A stretch of 64,000 nt of DNA from Pyrobaculum islandicum DSM 4184 (GTDB taxonomy: Archaea; Thermoproteota; Thermoprotei; Thermoproteales; Thermoproteaceae): the NCBI RefSeq assembly GCF_000015205.1, contig NC_008701.1:1243436-1307435 (forward strand). The letters run 5' to 3'. Under the pieces are notes generated by a model. The model had not been told where the DNA came from, ran no database searches, and saw nothing but the letters and a program-made list of their open reading frames with translations. A program made the translations under genes and the position numbers. Below are positions 37,600 through 50,424 of the stretch, in pieces (the first letter of the stretch is position 1; every line of letters begins with the position of its first letter).

Positions 37600-37870
37600 C
37601 TGGTTGCAAAGGGCTTAAAGTCTGTCTCCCAGCAGGCATGGGGGCGCCGCCCGAGAGGGCCCCATACCTGCTGGTCTCACGCCGGAGACGCCTTGGATGT
37701 CCGTGGCAGTGCGGGCGAGGAGAAAGTCCCTAGGCGCGAGTCAACTATTACCGACAACAATGGCCTAAGGACGCGGTGATACGTCGGATGGCCCTGGCGG
37801 GAGCTCGCCGCGGTGAAGACGCAGACGGAGAAAAACCGCGTCCCCGCCCTAAAGGGCGAACAGTTGTAAG
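37600..37870 (+). ncRNA. Solo family II right end / omega-RNA-like region
   Basis: No protein is supported. A strong hairpin pairs CCAGCAGGCATGGGG (37629-37643) with CCCCATACCTGCTGG (37660-37674), with a single C-A mismatch. Further on, GGGCGAGGAGAAAGTCCCTA matches the family-II right end at 21700-21600, and CCGCCCTAAAGGGCG closes it (37842-37856). The order agrees with the tnpB end at 47700-47612. No nuclease gene remains. Confidence 0.55.
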
Positions 37871-39062: not shown

Positions 39063-40511
39063 ATGGGTGTGGACCCCCCGCGTGGAAAAGCCTCCGCGGC
39101 CTCAAGGCGGCTGTCTGTGGGGAGGCTGGCGCTGGCGTCTGTTCTAGCCGTGGCGGCCGTGTTGTGTGCTCTGTACTACAGGGCGCCTTTTTATCCGCAC
39201 ATAACCGTCGTGGTGAAGAGCCCAAGCGGCTCTCCCCAGCCCCGGGCCTACGTCCAGGTCTACGCCTTGTTGCCGCCCGGCATTAACAAGTCGCTGGCCC
39301 TCGTGTGGAACGGCACAACCGACGGGCAGGGGAGGGCATACATACCACTGGGGAGGCTGGCCCCCATAGCTAGGAAGTGGGCTGAGAAGGGCTTCGGAAG
39401 CTCCGACGTCGGGCTACAGATAGTAGCCACATACGGCAACGCCACCGCCTTCTTCACGCGGTTCCTCTTCGTAACATACAAGCCGAAAGACGTCATAGAG
39501 GCGGACAACCCCCTCGGGTGGCTCTACTACAGCAAAACCGTCGAGGTAAAGCTGAAACAAGTCAAGATCAAGGCGCAGAGAGACGGGAGCCGCACCGCGA
39601 GTCCCTACGACGTCTCGGCCCCCCAGCCGCCGCCACCGCCCGCATCGGTATGCGGCGGACTAATGCCGATCTGGATGGAGGTGTGGGAGTACCAGACGCC
39701 AACGACGTACATACCTATAATCTGGCTATACGACAAAATGGGATACAACGCCGGCGGATATATCGAGGGCATAGCCTCCTCTTCAACAACTATGAGCTTC
39801 GCTGCTAGCGTCGCGCTCACGCCCGATACACAGTTGGGCAGTTCCAGCATAAGCAACGCCGAGTTTGAATTCGCCGGCACCAGCTTTTCAGACACCACCT
39901 TTGCGTTTAATAACGCGCCCTGGGGATATATGGGATTTGAAAACCCGACTTCTGTCGCATTGAATGTACGAGGTACTCTGGGCACGGCGGAGTTTCAAGT
40001 CTACTGCTACGACCCAATTACGGGTTACACGGCGCCGGTCGACTACTATGCCGTCGAGGTGTACATCCAGTCGGCTGATCTAAGTCGAATCTACAGGTCT
40101 ACGGCCGTCGGCATGACGCCCGTGGAGAACATGCTAAATATTCTGAGCCAATACGGCTATATAGGCTATTACCCCTTTGACCATTATCGAGTAGGCCCCG
40201 GTAACCCATACATTTATTCATTCATAAGCATTCAGCAGAATTCAAATTGGGGATTCTCTTGGGAGATTCCGGCGGGTGCTCTACTGATATATGTACTCGA
40301 AGGTATTGGCATTACGCTACCGTGGCTCCCCTTCGCAACGCCGGCCTTCCCCGGGGGAGCTCGGGGCGCGCGCCCGAGCCGCGTTGGGCAACCCAGGCGC
40401 GCGGGGGCCCGGCCGTGCCCGGGCGTTCGGGCTCGTTGGCTCTTGCAATCGGCCGGGTCCCCAAGGCCGGTGGGTTCATGTGAGAAAAATGTTACGAGGT
40501 TAAAAGTATGA
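39063..40511 (+). CDS. Surface protein truncated by a tnpB element
   Basis: The first about 420 residues are host-like. The N-terminus has a membrane segment (LALASVLAVAAVLCALYY, about 23-40), a short alpha/beta domain (HITVVVKSPSGSPQPRAYVQ), a PPPPP linker near 200 and a Tyr/Gly/Ser-rich beta domain (WMEVWEYQTPTTYIP onward). At about 40322 the reading frame enters the right end of the tnpB at 40492-41742. The remaining about 60 residues (PGGARGARPSRVGQ and so on) are translated omega-RNA sequence, rich in Arg/Pro/Gly. The original C-terminus is missing. The function is unknown; extracellular location likely. Confidence 0.65.
   Translation: MGVDPPRGKASAASRRLSVGRLALASVLAVAAVLCALYYRAPFYPHITVVVKSPSGSPQPRAYVQVYALLPPGINKSLALVWNGTTDGQGRAYIPLGRLAPIARKWAEKGFGSSDVGLQIVATYGNATAFFTRFLFVTYKPKDVIEADNPLGWLYYSKTVEVKLKQVKIKAQRDGSRTASPYDVSAPQPPPPPASVCGGLMPIWMEVWEYQTPTTYIPIIWLYDKMGYNAGGYIEGIASSSTTMSFAASVALTPDTQLGSSSISNAEFEFAGTSFSDTTFAFNNAPWGYMGFENPTSVALNVRGTLGTAEFQVYCYDPITGYTAPVDYYAVEVYIQSADLSRIYRSTAVGMTPVENMLNILSQYGYIGYYPFDHYRVGPGNPYIYSFISIQQNSNWGFSWEIPAGALLIYVLEGIGITLPWLPFATPAFPGGARGARPSRVGQPRRAGARPCPGVRARWLLQSAGSPRPVGSCEKNVTRLKV
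40323..40488 (-). ncRNA. omega-RNA-like right end, family I copy f
   Basis: In tnpB orientation it shows CACATGAACCCACCGG, several GC stems, and the end CCCCCGGGGAAGGCCGGCG...GAAGGGGAG shared with copies e and g. It directly follows the tnpB gene and invades the 3' part of the surface protein gene at about 40322. Confidence 0.65.
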
Positions 40512-41742
40512 GGGGTACCGAAAAAGTGGGTTGTTTTGTCTTCTGGAGGATTTCCCAGTACCTTCTCTTTGCCCATATCAGTGGCACGTTGTCTCTGTGG
40601 TCTGAGAAGCCGCAAGAGGGGCAACGCATTATGCGCTTTCTCTCCTCCATTTTCGCGCCACAACGGGGGCAGATGGTTGAGTACAGTCTTTCCTCAAGGT
40701 ACGGCAGTCCGTACCACTGCGCTAGCGCTTGCAAACGGCGACGTAGTTGGCCGAGACCGTCGTAGAGGTGCTTCTTCACACCGCTCTCGCCGCTCTGCTT
40801 CCGCTCTAGATACGTCACATCCTCCATCGTGTCGACGACTATGGCGGCGTTGTGCTCCCTCGCCAACTTAATTATCTCGTTTACGACGTCTTTGACAACG
40901 CCGCTTATCTTTCTATACCGCCTTGATGCAAGGTGGCGGGCTCTGTCTTCAAGACGTCTCTTTCTGGCGGGATCCGTCTCCCTCGCTGCTCGCTCGTCGA
41001 GACGGCTTATCTCCTCGTGGAGTCTCCTCAGTTCTCTCACCGCGTCTTCGTCTATAAGTCTCAACGTCTGTCTCAACTTCCCGTCCACGAGGAGACCCAC
41101 CGTGACGCCGTGGTCGAGACGATTCACGTCAACGGCGACTATCGCCTTGGGCTCCACAGGAGCTGTCTCGCGGGCAAAGACGAGGGCGACGTAGAGCTTG
41201 CCGTAGGTCGGCTCCTTCTTACCTTTCCGCTTTTCTATGCCCAAATATGCCAACTTGAGTCTGGCGCCCTCTTGAAGTCTCTCCCTTATCCAAGAGATGT
41301 CGCTTCTCCTCAGCGACACGACAAACGTTTTTTGCAATCTTCGCACTCTGAGGACGCCGTCTCTAAGGTTGACGAAGATCGCCGTACCCATATCTTTCTC
41401 GTTTTCAACCCTAAGCTGGGCGTCGAGCGGAATTGCCCGGTAGAACGCCACGTCGCGCCAGAACATCTTAACTTGCTTTACGAAGTACCTCCCCAACCCG
41501 TACTTGGGAAACACCTCATCTATTATCTTGACAGCCAGCTCCCGCCTGTCTGGCGTGAGGAGTCTGTCCAACTCCTCCGTAGTTAGCTTCGGCTCCTCTT
41601 GCCCCGTCAACTCTTTCAACAGCCTTCTGACGTACTCCTCCACCGCTAGGTGCATCCTTACGGCGAGGTCTAGGACGTCCGGCCGCTCCTCTACCAACCG
41701 CCAAGGTATTCTGATCTTCAACGTCCTGTAGACTTGGTTCAT
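40492..41742 (-). CDS. tnpB: TnpB RNA-guided nuclease (family I), full length
   Basis: 416 residues starting MNQVYRTLKIRIPWR at ATG 41742. RuvC-I is AVDVNRLDHGVTVG, RuvC-II VVDTMEDVTYLERK, the zinc ribbon CPRCGAKM...RCPSCGF, RuvC-III HRDN, then LIWAKRRYWEILQKTKQP and the tail LILLTS. All three catalytic acids are present and the frame is unbroken, so it may be active. The middle part (LRRLHEEISRLDERAARETD) differs clearly from the copy at 16395, so the copies have diverged or recombined. A left-end hairpin is at 41785-41857 and a right-end RNA at 40323-40488. Confidence 0.92.
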   Translation of the reverse strand: MNQVYRTLKIRIPWRLVEERPDVLDLAVRMHLAVEEYVRRLLKELTGQEEPKLTTEELDRLLTPDRRELAVKIIDEVFPKYGLGRYFVKQVKMFWRDVAFYRAIPLDAQLRVENEKDMGTAIFVNLRDGVLRVRRLQKTFVVSLRRSDISWIRERLQEGARLKLAYLGIEKRKGKKEPTYGKLYVALVFARETAPVEPKAIVAVDVNRLDHGVTVGLLVDGKLRQTLRLIDEDAVRELRRLHEEISRLDERAARETDPARKRRLEDRARHLASRRYRKISGVVKDVVNEIIKLAREHNAAIVVDTMEDVTYLERKQSGESGVKKHLYDGLGQLRRRLQALAQWYGLPYLEERLYSTICPRCGAKMEERKRIMRCPSCGFSDHRDNVPLIWAKRRYWEILQKTKQPTFSVPLILLTS

Positions 41743-43516: not shown

Positions 43517-43610
43517 ATGCAGATGCTTAAACCCCCACCTCTTTACAAAATCATGAAATGTGTCTCAAGACTCATAAACTTTTCCAAATCACGAAAACTG
43601 CTCAGCTACA

Positions 43611-43622
43611 CATATTTATATA
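43611..43622 (+). promoter_or_regulatory. TATA box of the ferritin-encapsulin gene
   Basis: ATATTTATATAC about 20-28 bases before ATG 43640, and inside the longer open frame. It supports a leaderless transcript and the shorter start. Confidence 0.6.
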
Positions 43623-43639: not shown

Positions 43640-44698
43640 ATGGTATTTGCAAAAAACCCGATTGACGTCGTTAGAGAGAAGAAGTTCGACTCTCTGGAGG
43701 TTGCAGATGCCCTGCGTCTGGCTATAATCGCGGAGCTTGACGCCATCAGCCTATATCTACAGCTGGCTAAATACGTAGAGGACGAGAGGGTGAGGAGGGT
43801 TTTTGAAGATGTTGCTAACGAGGAGAAGACACACTTCGGCGAGTTTCTCGCCTTGCTGAAGGCCTACGACCCCACGTTGGCTGGCGAGTTAAAGGCCGGC
43901 GCTGGGGAGGTAGAGAAGCTCACCGGTATAAAAAGTGGCGACCCCCCGGGGGACGGGGGGAATAGAGCGGAGGAGGCCGACAAGGGCAATTGGGTTGTGA
44001 AATTCGTCGAGGGGGTGAGGGGGGCCGTGGCGTCGGCTAGGAGGTTTAGGAGGTACCTCCAGACTTTCTACGTGGGGAGGGACGCAGATGCCGTCGGCGT
44101 CGAGGTGGTGGGGGCGCAGGGGTCGTTGGAGAGGGCTGTCATACCGCTGAGGGAGGTCAGGCTTAGGTTTTCTATCTCCTACCGGGGGCTTGAGGAGTGG
44201 CTTTCGAGAGGCGGCGCGTTTCCCGGAGAGGAGGCCGCGGCTAGGTTCGCCTACATGGAAGACGCGGCTGTGGCTGAGGCGTTGCTAAAGGGCGCCGGCA
44301 GAACTCTCGAAGCGTCTAGCTGGGAGAGGCCGGGGTCCGCCACCGCGGAGGTGGCTAGGGCTGTGGCTGAGCTGTACCGGGCCTACGTCCCAGAGCCCTA
44401 CGTCCTCTTCGTGAGCCCGGGGAGATACGCCAGACTTGTGGCTGTGGAGGAGAGGACAGGCGTCATGGAGCTCACCAGGGTGAAGTCCCTGGTGAGGGAG
44501 GTGGCGGTGATCCCGCAGCTGGAAGACGGCGTTGCCCTCCTGCTCTCCGCAAGCCCCGCCGTGGTAGACATCGCAGTGGGCGTAGACACAGAGATTGTCC
44601 ATCTGGGCCCCGACGAGGCGGGCCACAGCTTCCTCCTGAGGGAGACTCTTGCTGTTAGGATTAAAAAACCTGAGGGTGTTGTTGTGCTTAGGGGGTAG
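43640..44698 (+). CDS. Ferritin-like domain fused to encapsulin shell protein
   Basis: 352 residues from ATG 43640, like the Pyrococcus furiosus type of encapsulin. Residues 1-97 form an encapsulated-ferritin helix pair: IIAELDAISLYLQLAKY has Glu32, and ANEEKTHFGEFLALL has Glu62 and His65, the iron ligands. A Gly/Asp/Pro-rich linker (98-117) follows. Residues 118-352 are the HK97-fold shell protein, with YVPEPYVLFVSPGRYARLVA and a C-terminal LAVRIKKPEGVVVL. The product should assemble into a protein cage that stores iron inside. No separate cargo gene is near, which fits an in-built cargo. The longer frame from 43517 is rejected because of the TATA box. Confidence 0.88.
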   Translation: MVFAKNPIDVVREKKFDSLEVADALRLAIIAELDAISLYLQLAKYVEDERVRRVFEDVANEEKTHFGEFLALLKAYDPTLAGELKAGAGEVEKLTGIKSGDPPGDGGNRAEEADKGNWVVKFVEGVRGAVASARRFRRYLQTFYVGRDADAVGVEVVGAQGSLERAVIPLREVRLRFSISYRGLEEWLSRGGAFPGEEAAARFAYMEDAAVAEALLKGAGRTLEASSWERPGSATAEVARAVAELYRAYVPEPYVLFVSPGRYARLVAVEERTGVMELTRVKSLVREVAVIPQLEDGVALLLSASPAVVDIAVGVDTEIVHLGPDEAGHSFLLRETLAVRIKKPEGVVVLRG

Positions 44699-46148: not shown

Positions 46149-46880
46149 CTAGATAAAAACGTTTTTTCTACGTATTTCAGAGAGCAGTGAGATTTCTCTC
46201 AACATCTCTTCTGTAACATAGTCCCAATAGATGCCGTGGGGCTTCGGGTCGACTCTCTTGACGAAGATAATTTTTGTAGGCGTCGCTATAATATCTATAG
46301 GCAAGTCAAAGGGCTCTTTAGGTATGTCGTCTTCTACCAATTGTACGTCGTGTACAGTGGTGACGACTGGAGTCTCTTCGCCCACTTTGCCAAAGGTAGA
46401 CAATATCCCCCACTCGATTTCTGCATAGCCGTGAGATTTGCCTAGTCTCCTGCCTGTCTTTGGGTTAACTGCGACAGACCCAATTATGACTAGGTCTACT
46501 CTTGGCAGATGCCAAGGCTTTACAGACTTCCCCCATTTAAAGGCGCCGGCGATTGTCGAAGCCTCTCTATACGCCTCCCGCGGTATAGAACGTGGTTCGA
46601 GGAGTAAGAAGCCCTCTCTTATCCTTGGCGTCGGCATTATTACTGTTTTGCCGGCGGAGAGGGCCGCCTCACGGCAGGGCCTCTGCGGCGCGTCTGGGTT
46701 TATCTTCACGACGGCGGCGTTGATAAACTGGCTGAGGCGCGTTAGGTTTTGGCAAGCTATGTCTGCCCCTCTGAAGTTTGGTATTCTGCCGTAGACAGGC
46801 CGGGGGAACGCGGCGATGTCTCTCTCCTCTAGGAGACGCCATATGCGCTCTCTGATAGCCTGTTTTACGTCTTTAGCCAT
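46149..46880 (-). CDS. 5-formyltetrahydrofolate cyclo-ligase family protein
   Basis: 243 residues of the MTHFS/NagB-like fold: [55 protein letters not shown] and [14 protein letters not shown] (the substrate-loop motif GxGxGYxD in variant form). Archaeal members are often called MTHFS-like; with no standard folate pathway, they may act on a modified pterin. Its start overlaps the stop of the upstream gene by 8 bases, so the two are co-translated. Confidence 0.75.
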
Positions 46881-47611: not shown

Positions 47612-47640
47612 GCGCTCCCCCGCCCTAAAGGGCGGGGTTT
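47612..47640. repeat. Family II right-end palindrome
   Basis: CCCCCGCCCTAAAGGGCGGG, the terminal stem of the family-II tnpB element (gene at 47625-48908). The core CGCCCTAAAGGGCG is a perfect 14-base palindrome. It recurs at 37842, 49211 (shortened) and 50860. Confidence 0.75.
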
Positions 47641-48908
47641 CTCCTCGCCCACGCCCCCATTGGTAGCCAGGCTACCTCGGGCGTGGGGTCATCGGGCATG
47701 GGGGGCAACGGCACGGCCCCCTTCTCCAGTGCGCGCCTTTCGATGTTTATCGCCGCTACCACGTCCCTCCCCCACTCCCGCCCGCAGTGGGGGCAGAGGA
47801 GGTGTCTCGGGGCAGAGCCCCTCACAAGCCCCGCACCGCGGGCAGGAGGAAGAGGTTCCTCGCGGATTTACTTTCACAACCGGAATTCCCCTCTCCCTAG
47901 CTTTACGTATAATCTCTCTCAACATACTTCTAAATCCAGCTTTGTAGATTCTATCTCTGAGCTTTGGATCGTCAACGTCTTTGATCATGTTTCTTGGTGC
48001 ATTTTTTGGCAGATTTTCGACGGCGATGGCGGCGCCTAGCCTCTCCGCCTCTCTGACTACGAAATTGGCAATCTTCCTCCTAACGTCGTTCTTCTTGTTC
48101 AGCTCGTTCCTCTTAACGGCACGGCTCGCGTACCTATTCCCCTTCAGAGACTGCATGACCTCCCTTCGGGCATGGTAGCCAAGTGTGATATCTCTATCCC
48201 AGTCTCAAGAATGTACACCCTGTCCCCGGCCTTCACAGCCACGTTGTTCTCGTTGAGGTCGACGGCGATGATGCCCTTCGCCGGCCTCTCCTCCACAACC
48301 TTCTCGAAGACGAAGTAGACGTAGACCGCCCTCCTCTTTTCGTCCAGCCTAAGGCGCGGTTGCGACCTCAGCCTCCACCAGCCGTTGATGTGTCTCCAGA
48401 ACTGCTTGGTCGGCCAAAGCGGAATCGTGACCCACCCCCTGTGCGTCGACACCCTTACCGCCGTATAGCCCTCTGGCTTCCAGAGGATGTCGTCGAGCCA
48501 GATGCTGATTCTTTTCACTTCTGGCTTTTCCGTCTTCGCCCTACCCTCCCGCTTCAGCGTGAGGAAGCTCTTTACGCGTGTGGCTGCGTCCTGCGCTGCC
48601 GTGTAGATGTAGTGGGAGGGGAGGTCGGGGCGCCTTCTGCGTAGCTCTCCGTAGAGGGCTTTGCAGAGCGTGACGTGCCCCGTCACGCCGTGTTTAAAGC
48701 CGTATTCGACGAGGTGGACGACCAGCTCCCTATACCTCTCCTCCAGCTCTTTGATGTTTATCTTACGCCAGCTCAACCGCGGGCTGGGGACGGCGACGGC
48801 GTGCGTTATGATGTGTGCTTTTTTCTCGTCTTTCCTCTCTGCACTGTTCTTGTTGCGCCTCCGGCTACGCTTCTTCCGGCTCCCCTCTATACTATCCCCT
48901 GCTTCCAT
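47625..48908 (-). pseudogene. tnpB: tnpB (family II) with two frameshifts
   Basis: Second TnpB family of the window. Frame one (from 48908, 254 residues) has a basic N-terminus, the core, and RuvC-I IIAVDLNENNVAVKAGDRVY. At about 48150 an extra AT shifts the frame; frame two continues TLGYHARREVMQSLKGNRYA, RuvC-II AIAVENLPKNAPRNM and SSSCPRCGACEG. A second shift near 47835 leads to HLLCPHCGREWGRDVVAAIN (zinc ribbon and RuvC-III Asp) and the end PMGAWARRN. All catalytic residues exist but not in one frame. Joined, it would be about 425 residues. Right-end RNA sequence overlaps its 3' end. Confidence 0.8.
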
Positions 48909-49323: not shown

Positions 49324-49476
49324 ATGAAATACAGGACGGTCGTTTGGATTTCGAAACATCTGCCTCTGGAGGCTGAATACGGCGACGTGTCGCGGCTCGG
49401 CGCTGAGGTGAGGCTAGATCTCAGAGTGCCGTCGGCGCTTAAACCATATAAAAGCGCTCTTCAACACATTGTATGA
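49324..49476 (+). CDS. Small ORF coupled to the NTase gene
   Basis: 50 residues: MKYRTVVWISKHLPLEAEYG and RLGAEVRLDLRVPSALKPYK, mixed alpha/beta. TGA overlaps the ATG of the next gene (ATGA at 49473). A TTTAAGC element is about 25 bp upstream, but ATATAAAAG at 49446-49454, inside this ORF, could be an independent promoter of the NTase gene. It may be a real short gene or a fragment. Confidence 0.35.
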   Translation: MKYRTVVWISKHLPLEAEYGDVSRLGAEVRLDLRVPSALKPYKSALQHIV

Positions 49477-49991
49477 GTGAGCTGAGATTGCCGCCCAGCG
49501 TCAAGAGGGTCGTGGAGATATGCCGCTCCATGGGGTTTAAGGTATTTCTAATTGGGGCCCGGGCTTTGGAGTTCTACGGCGTGGTGAGGCACACAGCCGA
49601 TTGGGACTTGGCTATAGATCAACCGTTTACTGTAGAGGTGAGGGATAGGCTCACTGAAGCGTTGAGGGGGGCTGGCTACACTGTGCAGTGGAGGAAGTGG
49701 GGGCTGTACGTCGACGCAGCGGGCGTCCATATAGACATAAATTACGCGCCCCTTATACTAGACAACGACTTTATTTCTAGGTGTAGAGAGGTAGGGGGCG
49801 TCTTTATCCCATCCCCAGAGGATCTAGTTATCTTAAAGCTTGCCAGCGGCGAACGAAAAGACGTAGAGGACTTAAAGAGGCTTCTCAGACTGCCGCTCGA
49901 CTTATCTTACCTCAAAAAGAGGGCTCTCCAGGCGGGCCTGGATAAGGAGCTACAGAAGATTTGGCAGAGGGTGCATGGTACTCGCCTTTAG
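49473..49991 (+). CDS. Nucleotidyltransferase-fold protein (AbiEii/MNT-like)
   Basis: 172 residues. FLIGARALEFYGVVRHTADW with the following DLAID gives the G-x...T-x-DWDLA signature of the DUF1814/AbiEii and related nucleotidyltransferases, with two of the metal-binding acids. A third acid may be in VHIDINYAPL (about 88-97). PEDLVILKLASGERKDVEDL is a typical C-terminal helix motif of this group. Such proteins are often toxins or antitoxin-like modifiers in two-gene modules. Here the downstream gene overlaps by 17 bases, so they form a pair. Confidence 0.75.
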   Translation: MSELRLPPSVKRVVEICRSMGFKVFLIGARALEFYGVVRHTADWDLAIDQPFTVEVRDRLTEALRGAGYTVQWRKWGLYVDAAGVHIDINYAPLILDNDFISRCREVGGVFIPSPEDLVILKLASGERKDVEDLKRLLRLPLDLSYLKKRALQAGLDKELQKIWQRVHGTRL

Positions 49992-50424
49992 AGAAGGGGA
50001 GTGTCTGCTTTTCGGAGCTGTGAGGTTGTCAGCCGAGGCCGTATATGTCCTGGAGGGCTGTGCCCTGGCTGGCTGGTCCGCCCTCGCCGCCCATTTAGGT
50101 ACGGCGCTACCCCTTCCATTTCACCCCCCGTATCTCCAGTTCGTATGCCCGTCGCTCGACGCAGTTGTTGAGAGGGCTATGAAAACCTCGCTACGTGTCT
50201 GGAGGGGGCGGAGGCGCGTCTCCCTCGGCACCAGGCTGGGCAAGGAGGCCGAGGTAATTGAAGGATTCGTCACCGGTGAGCAGTTCCGCTGTGGGTTGTA
50301 TGTACAGCGGTGCGACGAGGCGGTTAGACACATTGCAACACACGGCCCCGGCTCGAAGTATCTAAAGCTGTTGCCGAGATACGTAGAGGAGGGCTTGTGC
50401 CTGCATAAAAGGCGTTCCGCATAG
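49975..50424 (+). CDS. Unknown partner of the NTase-fold protein
   Basis: 149 residues from ATG 49975, overlapping the NTase gene by 17 bases. Recognisable pattern: EGCALAGWSALAAHLGTALP (hydrophobic helix), then VWRGRRRVSLGTRLGKEAEV (basic) and CGLYVQRCDEAVRHIATHGP. No known family was recognised. The tight coupling to a nucleotidyltransferase suggests a two-component unit, maybe toxin-antitoxin or defence, in a region full of mobile DNA. This is inference from gene order. Confidence 0.5.
   Translation: MVLAFREGECLLFGAVRLSAEAVYVLEGCALAGWSALAAHLGTALPLPFHPPYLQFVCPSLDAVVERAMKTSLRVWRGRRRVSLGTRLGKEAEVIEGFVTGEQFRCGLYVQRCDEAVRHIATHGPGSKYLKLLPRYVEEGLCLHKRRSA

What the first reader, a model, noticed from the sequence alone, without database searches (positions are those of the whole stretch)
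43640..44698. Single-chain ferritin-encapsulin nanocompartment
The cargo domain (Glu32, Glu62, His65) and the HK97-fold shell are one chain, as in Pyrococcus. In a Thermoproteales member this is noteworthy, and the Asp/Pro/Gly linker between them is unusual.
Basis: partly seen in the sequence, partly recalled or inferred. Interest (0 to 1): 0.55.

Follow-up and report, generated by a model that had tools for sequence, protein, structure and literature searches.

The report
Archaeal ferritin-encapsulin fusion protein
This archaeal gene encodes what is most likely a self-packaging iron-storage nanocompartment in which the iron-oxidising enzyme and the virus-like shell are one protein; it is real, but it belongs to a type already described from related archaea.

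Summary
ATG 43640 to stop 44698 (+) encodes 352 aa: an EncFtn ferroxidase domain (about 1-96; E32, Y39, E62, H65), a short linker (about 97-111, with GDPPGDGG) and an HK97-fold encapsulin shell (about 112-352). The best solved-structure match is the Pyrococcus furiosus particle 2e0z, E 4.9e-47, query 5-350. The predicted shell superposes on 2e0z at Z 24.8.

The claim of novelty fails. Flp-fusion encapsulins are published as archaeal and mostly crenarchaeal (PMC8346489, passages). In this order 22 of 45 genomes have a shell match; the 16 distinct intact copies are all fused, and no match is an intact lone shell. The linker is a clade trait: DPP is in 16 of 16 Thermoproteales and 22 of 52 other Thermoproteota copies. 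The gene sits in a Thermoproteales clade of 15.

A side lead is better than the finding: free-standing EncFtn relatives, ending where the linker would begin, recur in Thermoproteota. 81 of 398 genomes match the family profile without a shell match, and fused and free forms interleave on a short-alignment tree.

The parts
43615..43622 (+). TATA-like element TTTATATA, 18-25 bases upstream of the start; probably a leaderless transcript
   Evidence: Sequence; same element at the same distance in the sister copy L017. Its role as a promoter is inferred.
43640..44698 (+). Whole coding sequence of the EncFtn-encapsulin fusion, 352 aa plus stop
43640..43927 (+). EncFtn ferroxidase domain, residues 1-96, with E32, Y39, E62, H65 (ExxH) and outer acidic residues D57, E61, E68
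   Evidence: PF02915 4.2e-08 (over cut-off), PF22277 2.8e-04 (21 bits, under its cut-off of 27); 5n5e E 5.9e-25 over residues 4-98; residue conservation
43928..43972 (+). Linker, residues about 97-111, containing the conserved D101-P102-P103
   Evidence: pLDDT under 50 for residues 89-115; DPP in 16 of 16 Thermoproteales copies
43973..44695 (+). HK97-fold encapsulin shell, residues about 112-352
   Evidence: PF04454 6.2e-24; model against 2e0z_A Z 24.8, rmsd 3.1, 230 aligned

Best explanation
The gene encodes a Flp-fusion Family 1 encapsulin. The shell parts of many identical chains assemble into an icosahedral particle, T = 3 and 180 chains if it follows P. furiosus. Each chain's N-terminal EncFtn domain is thereby placed inside without a targeting peptide. 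EncFtn domains pair so that E32, E62 and H65 of two chains form a di-iron ferroxidase site, which oxidises Fe(II) so that ferric mineral is stored in the shell. It probably buffers iron and protects against oxidants. Shown here: the fusion, the active-site residues, the predicted shell fold, conservation, and placement within a Thermoproteales clade. Inferred from characterised relatives: assembly, T number, pairing, oxidation and storage.
For: Match to the P. furiosus particle protein over query 5-350 (E 4.9e-47) and to its EncFtn structure (E 5.9e-25). The predicted shell aligns to 2e0z at Z 24.8 and to other Family 1 shells at Z 18.1-24.9 (Foldseek E 1.7e-18 to 2e0z_A). E32, Y39, E62 and H65 are all kept in 76 of 77 distinct fused proteins, window included; the exception is L150. 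The genome has no PF00210 match at E 0.001, so this may be its main ferritin-type store. Published Flp-fusion systems are archaeal, mostly crenarchaeal, and those of P. furiosus and S. solfataricus form T = 3 particles (PMC8346489, passages).
Against: Several specific models score under their curated cut-offs: encap_f1 92.7 of 100, EncB_fam 66.9 of 90, TIGR04535 51.4 of 125, PF22277 21 of 27. The ferritin half of the model is only moderately confident (block pLDDT 55-80 for residues 11-90), the linker is disordered, pTM is 0.64, and the fold search reported the shell only. No other PF00210 or PF02915 match lies in the window, although published systems often sit beside other ferritin-like genes. 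Between this gene and its sister copy the shell has 5 synonymous and 14 nonsynonymous changes, which could mean recent relaxation. One single-contig genome of the order (G002) keeps only the latter part of the shell (L018).
Confidence: 0.93

Rival explanations
1. The shell part is decaying in this lineage, and the EncFtn domain does the work as a free decamer or small assembly rather than inside a closed particle.
For: Between the window gene and the sister copy, the ferritin has 10 synonymous and 3 nonsynonymous changes but the shell 5 and 14 (Fisher p 0.010, post hoc). The three other pairs over 95% identical have shell dN/dS of 0.22, 0.19 and 0.12, against 0.98 here. Congener G033 has a broken copy. 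EncFtn relatives without a shell match are common in the phylum sample.
Against: Against congeners L010 and L013 the shell dN/dS is about 0.18-0.19, though dS is near saturation. The shell frame is intact and its predicted fold is complete. The counts in the close pair are small and were examined after the fact.
Confidence: 0.06
2. The HK97-fold part is a prophage capsid gene beside an unrelated rubrerythrin-like domain, not a nanocompartment.
For: HK97-fold phage capsids also match the model, at Z up to 17.3 (9ocb; 3e8k 16.5).
Against: Family 1 encapsulins score Z 18.1-24.9 in the same list. The chain matches the P. furiosus fusion almost end to end. The gene lies in an order-wide clade of fused proteins. 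One scan of viral contigs with this protein alone, which finds close relatives only, gave none.
Confidence: 0.01

Closest known systems
Pyrococcus furiosus Flp-fusion encapsulin (PDB 2e0z shell, 5n5e EncFtn domain)
   Same: Same order of domains in one chain, same length class (345 and 352 aa), same E/Y/ExxH active site, same predicted shell fold
   Different: Sequence is distant; on the fused tree P. furiosus, a long branch, lies outside the main Thermoproteota group; no DPP in its linker
Crenarchaeal Flp-fusion encapsulins (Family 1; Andreas and Giessen 2021, PMC8346489), including the Sulfolobus solfataricus particle
   Same: Same architecture; the window protein is a further member
   Different: No difference in kind seen. 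Eight rows of one unnamed family, f31 (my guess: Sulfolobaceae), form a separate, very divergent clade without DPP
Two-gene EncFtn plus encapsulin systems of bacteria (Rhodospirillum rubrum, Haliangium ochraceum, Myxococcus xanthus)
   Same: EncFtn chemistry and HK97-fold shell
   Different: [quoted passage not shown] here it is tethered covalently
s-FLP, short free-standing EncFtn proteins such as Nitrosomonas europaea NE0167 (3k6c)
   Same: EncFtn domain of about 95-100 aa
   Different: No shell fused; the free-standing archaeal relatives found here resemble this class in length

Membership tests
Family 1 encapsulin, Flp-fusion type | HK97-fold Family 1 shell domain | tested here: met
   PF04454 85.1 bits against cut-off 24.3; Z 24.8 to 2e0z
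Family 1 encapsulin, Flp-fusion type | NCBIfam NF041155 (encap_f1) curated score | tested here: inconclusive
   92.7 bits, below the cut-off of 100, though the best NCBIfam match. A curated score is a naming rule, not a biological feature.
Family 1 encapsulin, Flp-fusion type | Flp/EncFtn domain fused N-terminal to the shell in one chain | tested here: met
   One open frame with both domains, aligned with 2e0z over query 5-350
Family 1 encapsulin, Flp-fusion type | EncFtn residues E32, E62, H65, with the archaeal fusion variant DxxxEE62xA(T)H65 and E68 | tested here: met
   D57-VAN-E61-E62-K-T-H65 and E68 present; motif as given in PMC11202242 (passages)
Family 1 encapsulin, Flp-fusion type | EncFtn two-helix fold | tested here: inconclusive
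   Sequence match to 5n5e E 5.9e-25; helices 18-45, 49-76 and 78-95 predicted, but confidence is moderate and the fold search reported the shell only
Family 1 encapsulin, Flp-fusion type | Self-assembly into an icosahedral particle with internal Flp | not testable with these tools
   Needs electron microscopy
Family 1 encapsulin, Flp-fusion type | Fe(II) oxidation and iron storage | not testable with these tools
   Needs a biochemical assay

The most novel reading that the evidence does not exclude
In Thermoproteota the EncFtn domain is the conserved working unit and the shell is an optional partner that has been lost, or gained, several times. The fused form seen here and the free-standing, shell-less form would be interchangeable states of one iron enzyme, so EncFtn would have a useful function without an encapsulin.
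Probability: 0.3. Interest if true: 0.45.

Novelty: new member of a known kind. Interest (0 to 1): 0.15.

Why it matters
As found, it adds one more member to a described class and corrects the idea that it is unusual in this order. The related set makes a question testable: bacterial EncFtn is reported to need its shell to store iron (PMC5012862, abstract passage), yet many archaeal genomes match the EncFtn family profile with no shell match.

Tried and rejected
Viral origin: one viral-contig scan with the single protein gave 2 pattern matches and no relative. Conserved operon: ORFs of 80 aa or more around the gene were compared (BLASTP E 1e-8) with the same regions of ten relatives, L135-L144. 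The nearest, G030, shares ORFs on both sides. Others share single items: G028 the ORF at 37776, G029 and G035 the ORF at 46152, broken-copy genome G033 a match to the TnpB-like ORF at 40495, and G018, of another family, two adjacent ORFs at 49473 and 49975. No ORF next to the fusion is shared beyond G030 by this test. Neighbours were not searched against family libraries. Ferritin substitution: PF00210 and the fusion are not mutually exclusive, since G028 and G031 have both. Literature: 'encapsulin' with 'Pyrobaculum' found no paper. 'encapsulin', 'ferritin-like', 'Thermoproteus' found two; in PMC8346489 the one 'thermoprote' occurrence lies in a reference on another enzyme, and the other paper was not opened. 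'encapsulin', 'Thermoproteota', 'ferritin', 'loss' found none. Searches were seen as listings. So I cannot say whether this individual gene is in a published list. Searches failed (wrong strand; accession not held); one search was repeated with other rows.

Counts and rows left out. Of 23 matches in 22 Thermoproteales genomes, 16 distinct intact fused copies were counted (L001-L015, L017). Not counted: L016 (fused, C-terminal frame change), L018 (only the latter part of the shell in frame), L019 and L022 (contig edge), L020/L023 (one fused gene in two frames), L021 (broken). The 77 fused proteins needed a nearly complete shell match; they come from loci chosen regions, plus P. furiosus. Not every full-length match was fetched (for example G348, G324 and G260 were not). 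The genome-contig scan reported 200 pattern stretches, which may be a ceiling, and 76 relatives. L087 (fragment) was left out of the tree. The match list is cut at its lower end.

Full report
The observation. The window lies at 1,243,436-1,307,435 of a 1,826,402-base single-contig genome. From memory only, that size fits Pyrobaculum islandicum; no call names it. The ORF from ATG 43640 to stop 44698 encodes 352 aa. A longer frame opens at 43517.

What it is. Pfam gives Linocin_M18 (encapsulin) for residues 162-338 and Rubrerythrin for 23-81, both over cut-off; EncFtn-like is under its cut-off. NCBIfam's encap_f1 is the best match at 92.7 bits, under its cut-off of 100; EncB_fam and TIGR04535 match the ferritin part, also under cut-off. 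In the PDB the best match is the P. furiosus virus-like particle 2e0z over query 5-350 (E 4.9e-47), then its EncFtn domain 5n5e (E 5.9e-25). An AlphaFold2 model from ten relatives has mean pLDDT 79.3 and pTM 0.64: ten-residue blocks of the shell from residue 121 lie at 74-95, those of residues 11-90 at 55-80, and residues 89-115 are under 50. Foldseek's top match is 2e0z_A. VIA-align gives Z 24.8 with rmsd 3.1 over 230 residues, model 116-351 on 2e0z 110-345. The linker is therefore about 97-111.

How common it is. In this order 22 of 45 genomes have a Linocin_M18 match. The 16 distinct intact copies are all fused to EncFtn; the other matches are frame-broken, truncated or at contig ends, and none is an intact shell standing alone. 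In a sample of 398 Thermoproteota genomes 71 have a shell match. The shell model also rang in 3 of 14 named control genomes: Thermotoga maritima, Sulfolobus acidocaldarius and Methanosarcina acetivorans. Published work states that Flp-fusion encapsulins are all archaeal and mostly crenarchaeal, with T = 3 particles for P. furiosus and S. solfataricus (PMC8346489, passages). [quoted passage not shown]

The linker. D-P-P is invariant in the ten-row alignment, present in 16 of 16 Thermoproteales copies, 22 of 52 other Thermoproteota copies, 0 of 8 of the f31 clade and not in P. furiosus. It is a clade trait in a stretch of variable length, not an oddity of this protein. The broken copy L020/L023 has DSQP there. 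Its role is unknown; a stiff exit from the last ferritin helix is a guess.

History. In a quick tree of 77 fused proteins the window protein is sister to G030 (95% identical), then to two more congeners, within a Thermoproteales clade of 15 (SH-aLRT 99). The same 15 group in the careful ferritin-domain tree (100/94). So no transfer from outside the order is indicated for this gene. The clade does not follow the family and genus codes everywhere: of six intact copies from this genus four group together, L006 lies among rows of family f3, and L002 (G028) lies outside the clade. L009, of this family, pairs with an f3 row in both trees. Transfers within the order are therefore possible. L002's neighbours differ between trees (Thermofilales and Ignisphaera rows, support 87; L059). 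P. furiosus and the f31 rows are long branches whose meeting should not be trusted.

Selection. Against congeners L010 and L013 the ferritin has dN/dS about 0.09-0.10 and the shell 0.18-0.19, with dS of 1.6-1.8, near saturation. Against the sister, the ferritin has 10 synonymous and 3 nonsynonymous differences but the shell 5 and 14 (Fisher p 0.010, chosen after seeing it). Three other pairs over 95% identical give shell values of 0.22, 0.19 and 0.12. That is a weak hint of recent relaxation in the shell, not a finding.

Function and setting. G000 has no PF00210 match and one PF02915 match besides the fusion (E 2.0e-5, outside the window). The fusion may thus be the cell's main ferritin-type iron store. 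By the ORF comparison no adjacent gene is shared beyond the nearest relative, so it is probably expressed alone (inferred). Assembly, oxidation and storage are inferred from relatives.

Side result. The named-genome scan returned 76 loci. In 26 of them (L073-L098), and in two bacterial ones (L099, L100), the EncFtn ORF ends without a shell; in L073-L098 it is 75-145 codons stop to stop. The shell profile found no intact shell in the fetched DNA of these loci, though some contigs end soon after. Two are special: L087 is a Vulcanisaeta fragment with the DPP linker, and L077 keeps shell remnants downstream in other frames. In the phylum sample 150 of 398 genomes match the fused-family profile and 71 match the shell; comparing the two lists by eye, 69 are in both and 81 match the profile without a shell match. 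The 81 were not inspected one by one; the weakest may be other rubrerythrin-like proteins, some genomes are incomplete, and PF04454 could miss very divergent shells. On a 97-column tree of 77 fused and 27 free-standing rows the two forms interleave: 11 changes, at least 5 forced by starred branches. A single fused clade fits worse (p-AU 0.019). Few columns, long branches and a bootstrap that had not settled are caveats. In L077, nested among fused copies, the EncFtn is intact while the shell is broken, which looks like loss of the shell, or a poor assembly. I did not find this described in the searches made, which cover open-licence papers only and were mostly seen as listings.

Verdict.

Noticed in passing
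L073-L098 (for example L078:3293-3619, L091:5998-6297): Free-standing EncFtn ORFs close to the fused domain, ending about where the linker would begin, with no intact shell found in the fetched DNA; 81 of 398 sampled Thermoproteota genomes match the family profile without a shell match.
   Followed up: partly
L077:1543-2503: Intact EncFtn ORF followed by a shell remnant broken over several frames: a possible case of shell loss with the ferritin kept, or a poor assembly.
   Followed up: partly
L002 (G028:C1:1165914-1166918): One congener's fusion lies outside the Thermoproteales clade, with neighbours that differ between the two trees; a possible horizontal replacement.
   Followed up: partly
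L021 / G033:C61:3229-4040: Broken copy of the fusion in a congener, with pieces in several frames.
   Followed up: no
43973-44695: Shell domain against its sister copy: 5 synonymous and 14 nonsynonymous changes, unlike the ferritin (10 and 3); small numbers, post hoc.
   Followed up: partly
L051:7034-7513 and L060:7011-7517: A second ORF with weak ferritin-domain matches lies directly after the fusion (E 1.2e-5 and 7.5e-4), in line with the published remark that such systems often sit beside other ferritin-like genes.
   Followed up: no
L150 (G076:C1:1053500-1055200): A fusion copy aligned with H, K and Q in place of Y39, E62 and H65, on a very long branch; its ferroxidase site may be lost.
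   Followed up: no
49473-49991 and 49975-50424 (+): Two adjacent ORFs with relatives, also adjacent, about 5.4 kb from the fusion in G018, a genome of another family (L144:3-900); not identified.
   Followed up: no
40492-41742 (-) and about 47625-48908 (-): TnpB-like proteins (recognised by eye from a zinc-ribbon CPRCG...CPSCG pattern, recalled, not searched); the second looks split over two frames.
   Followed up: no
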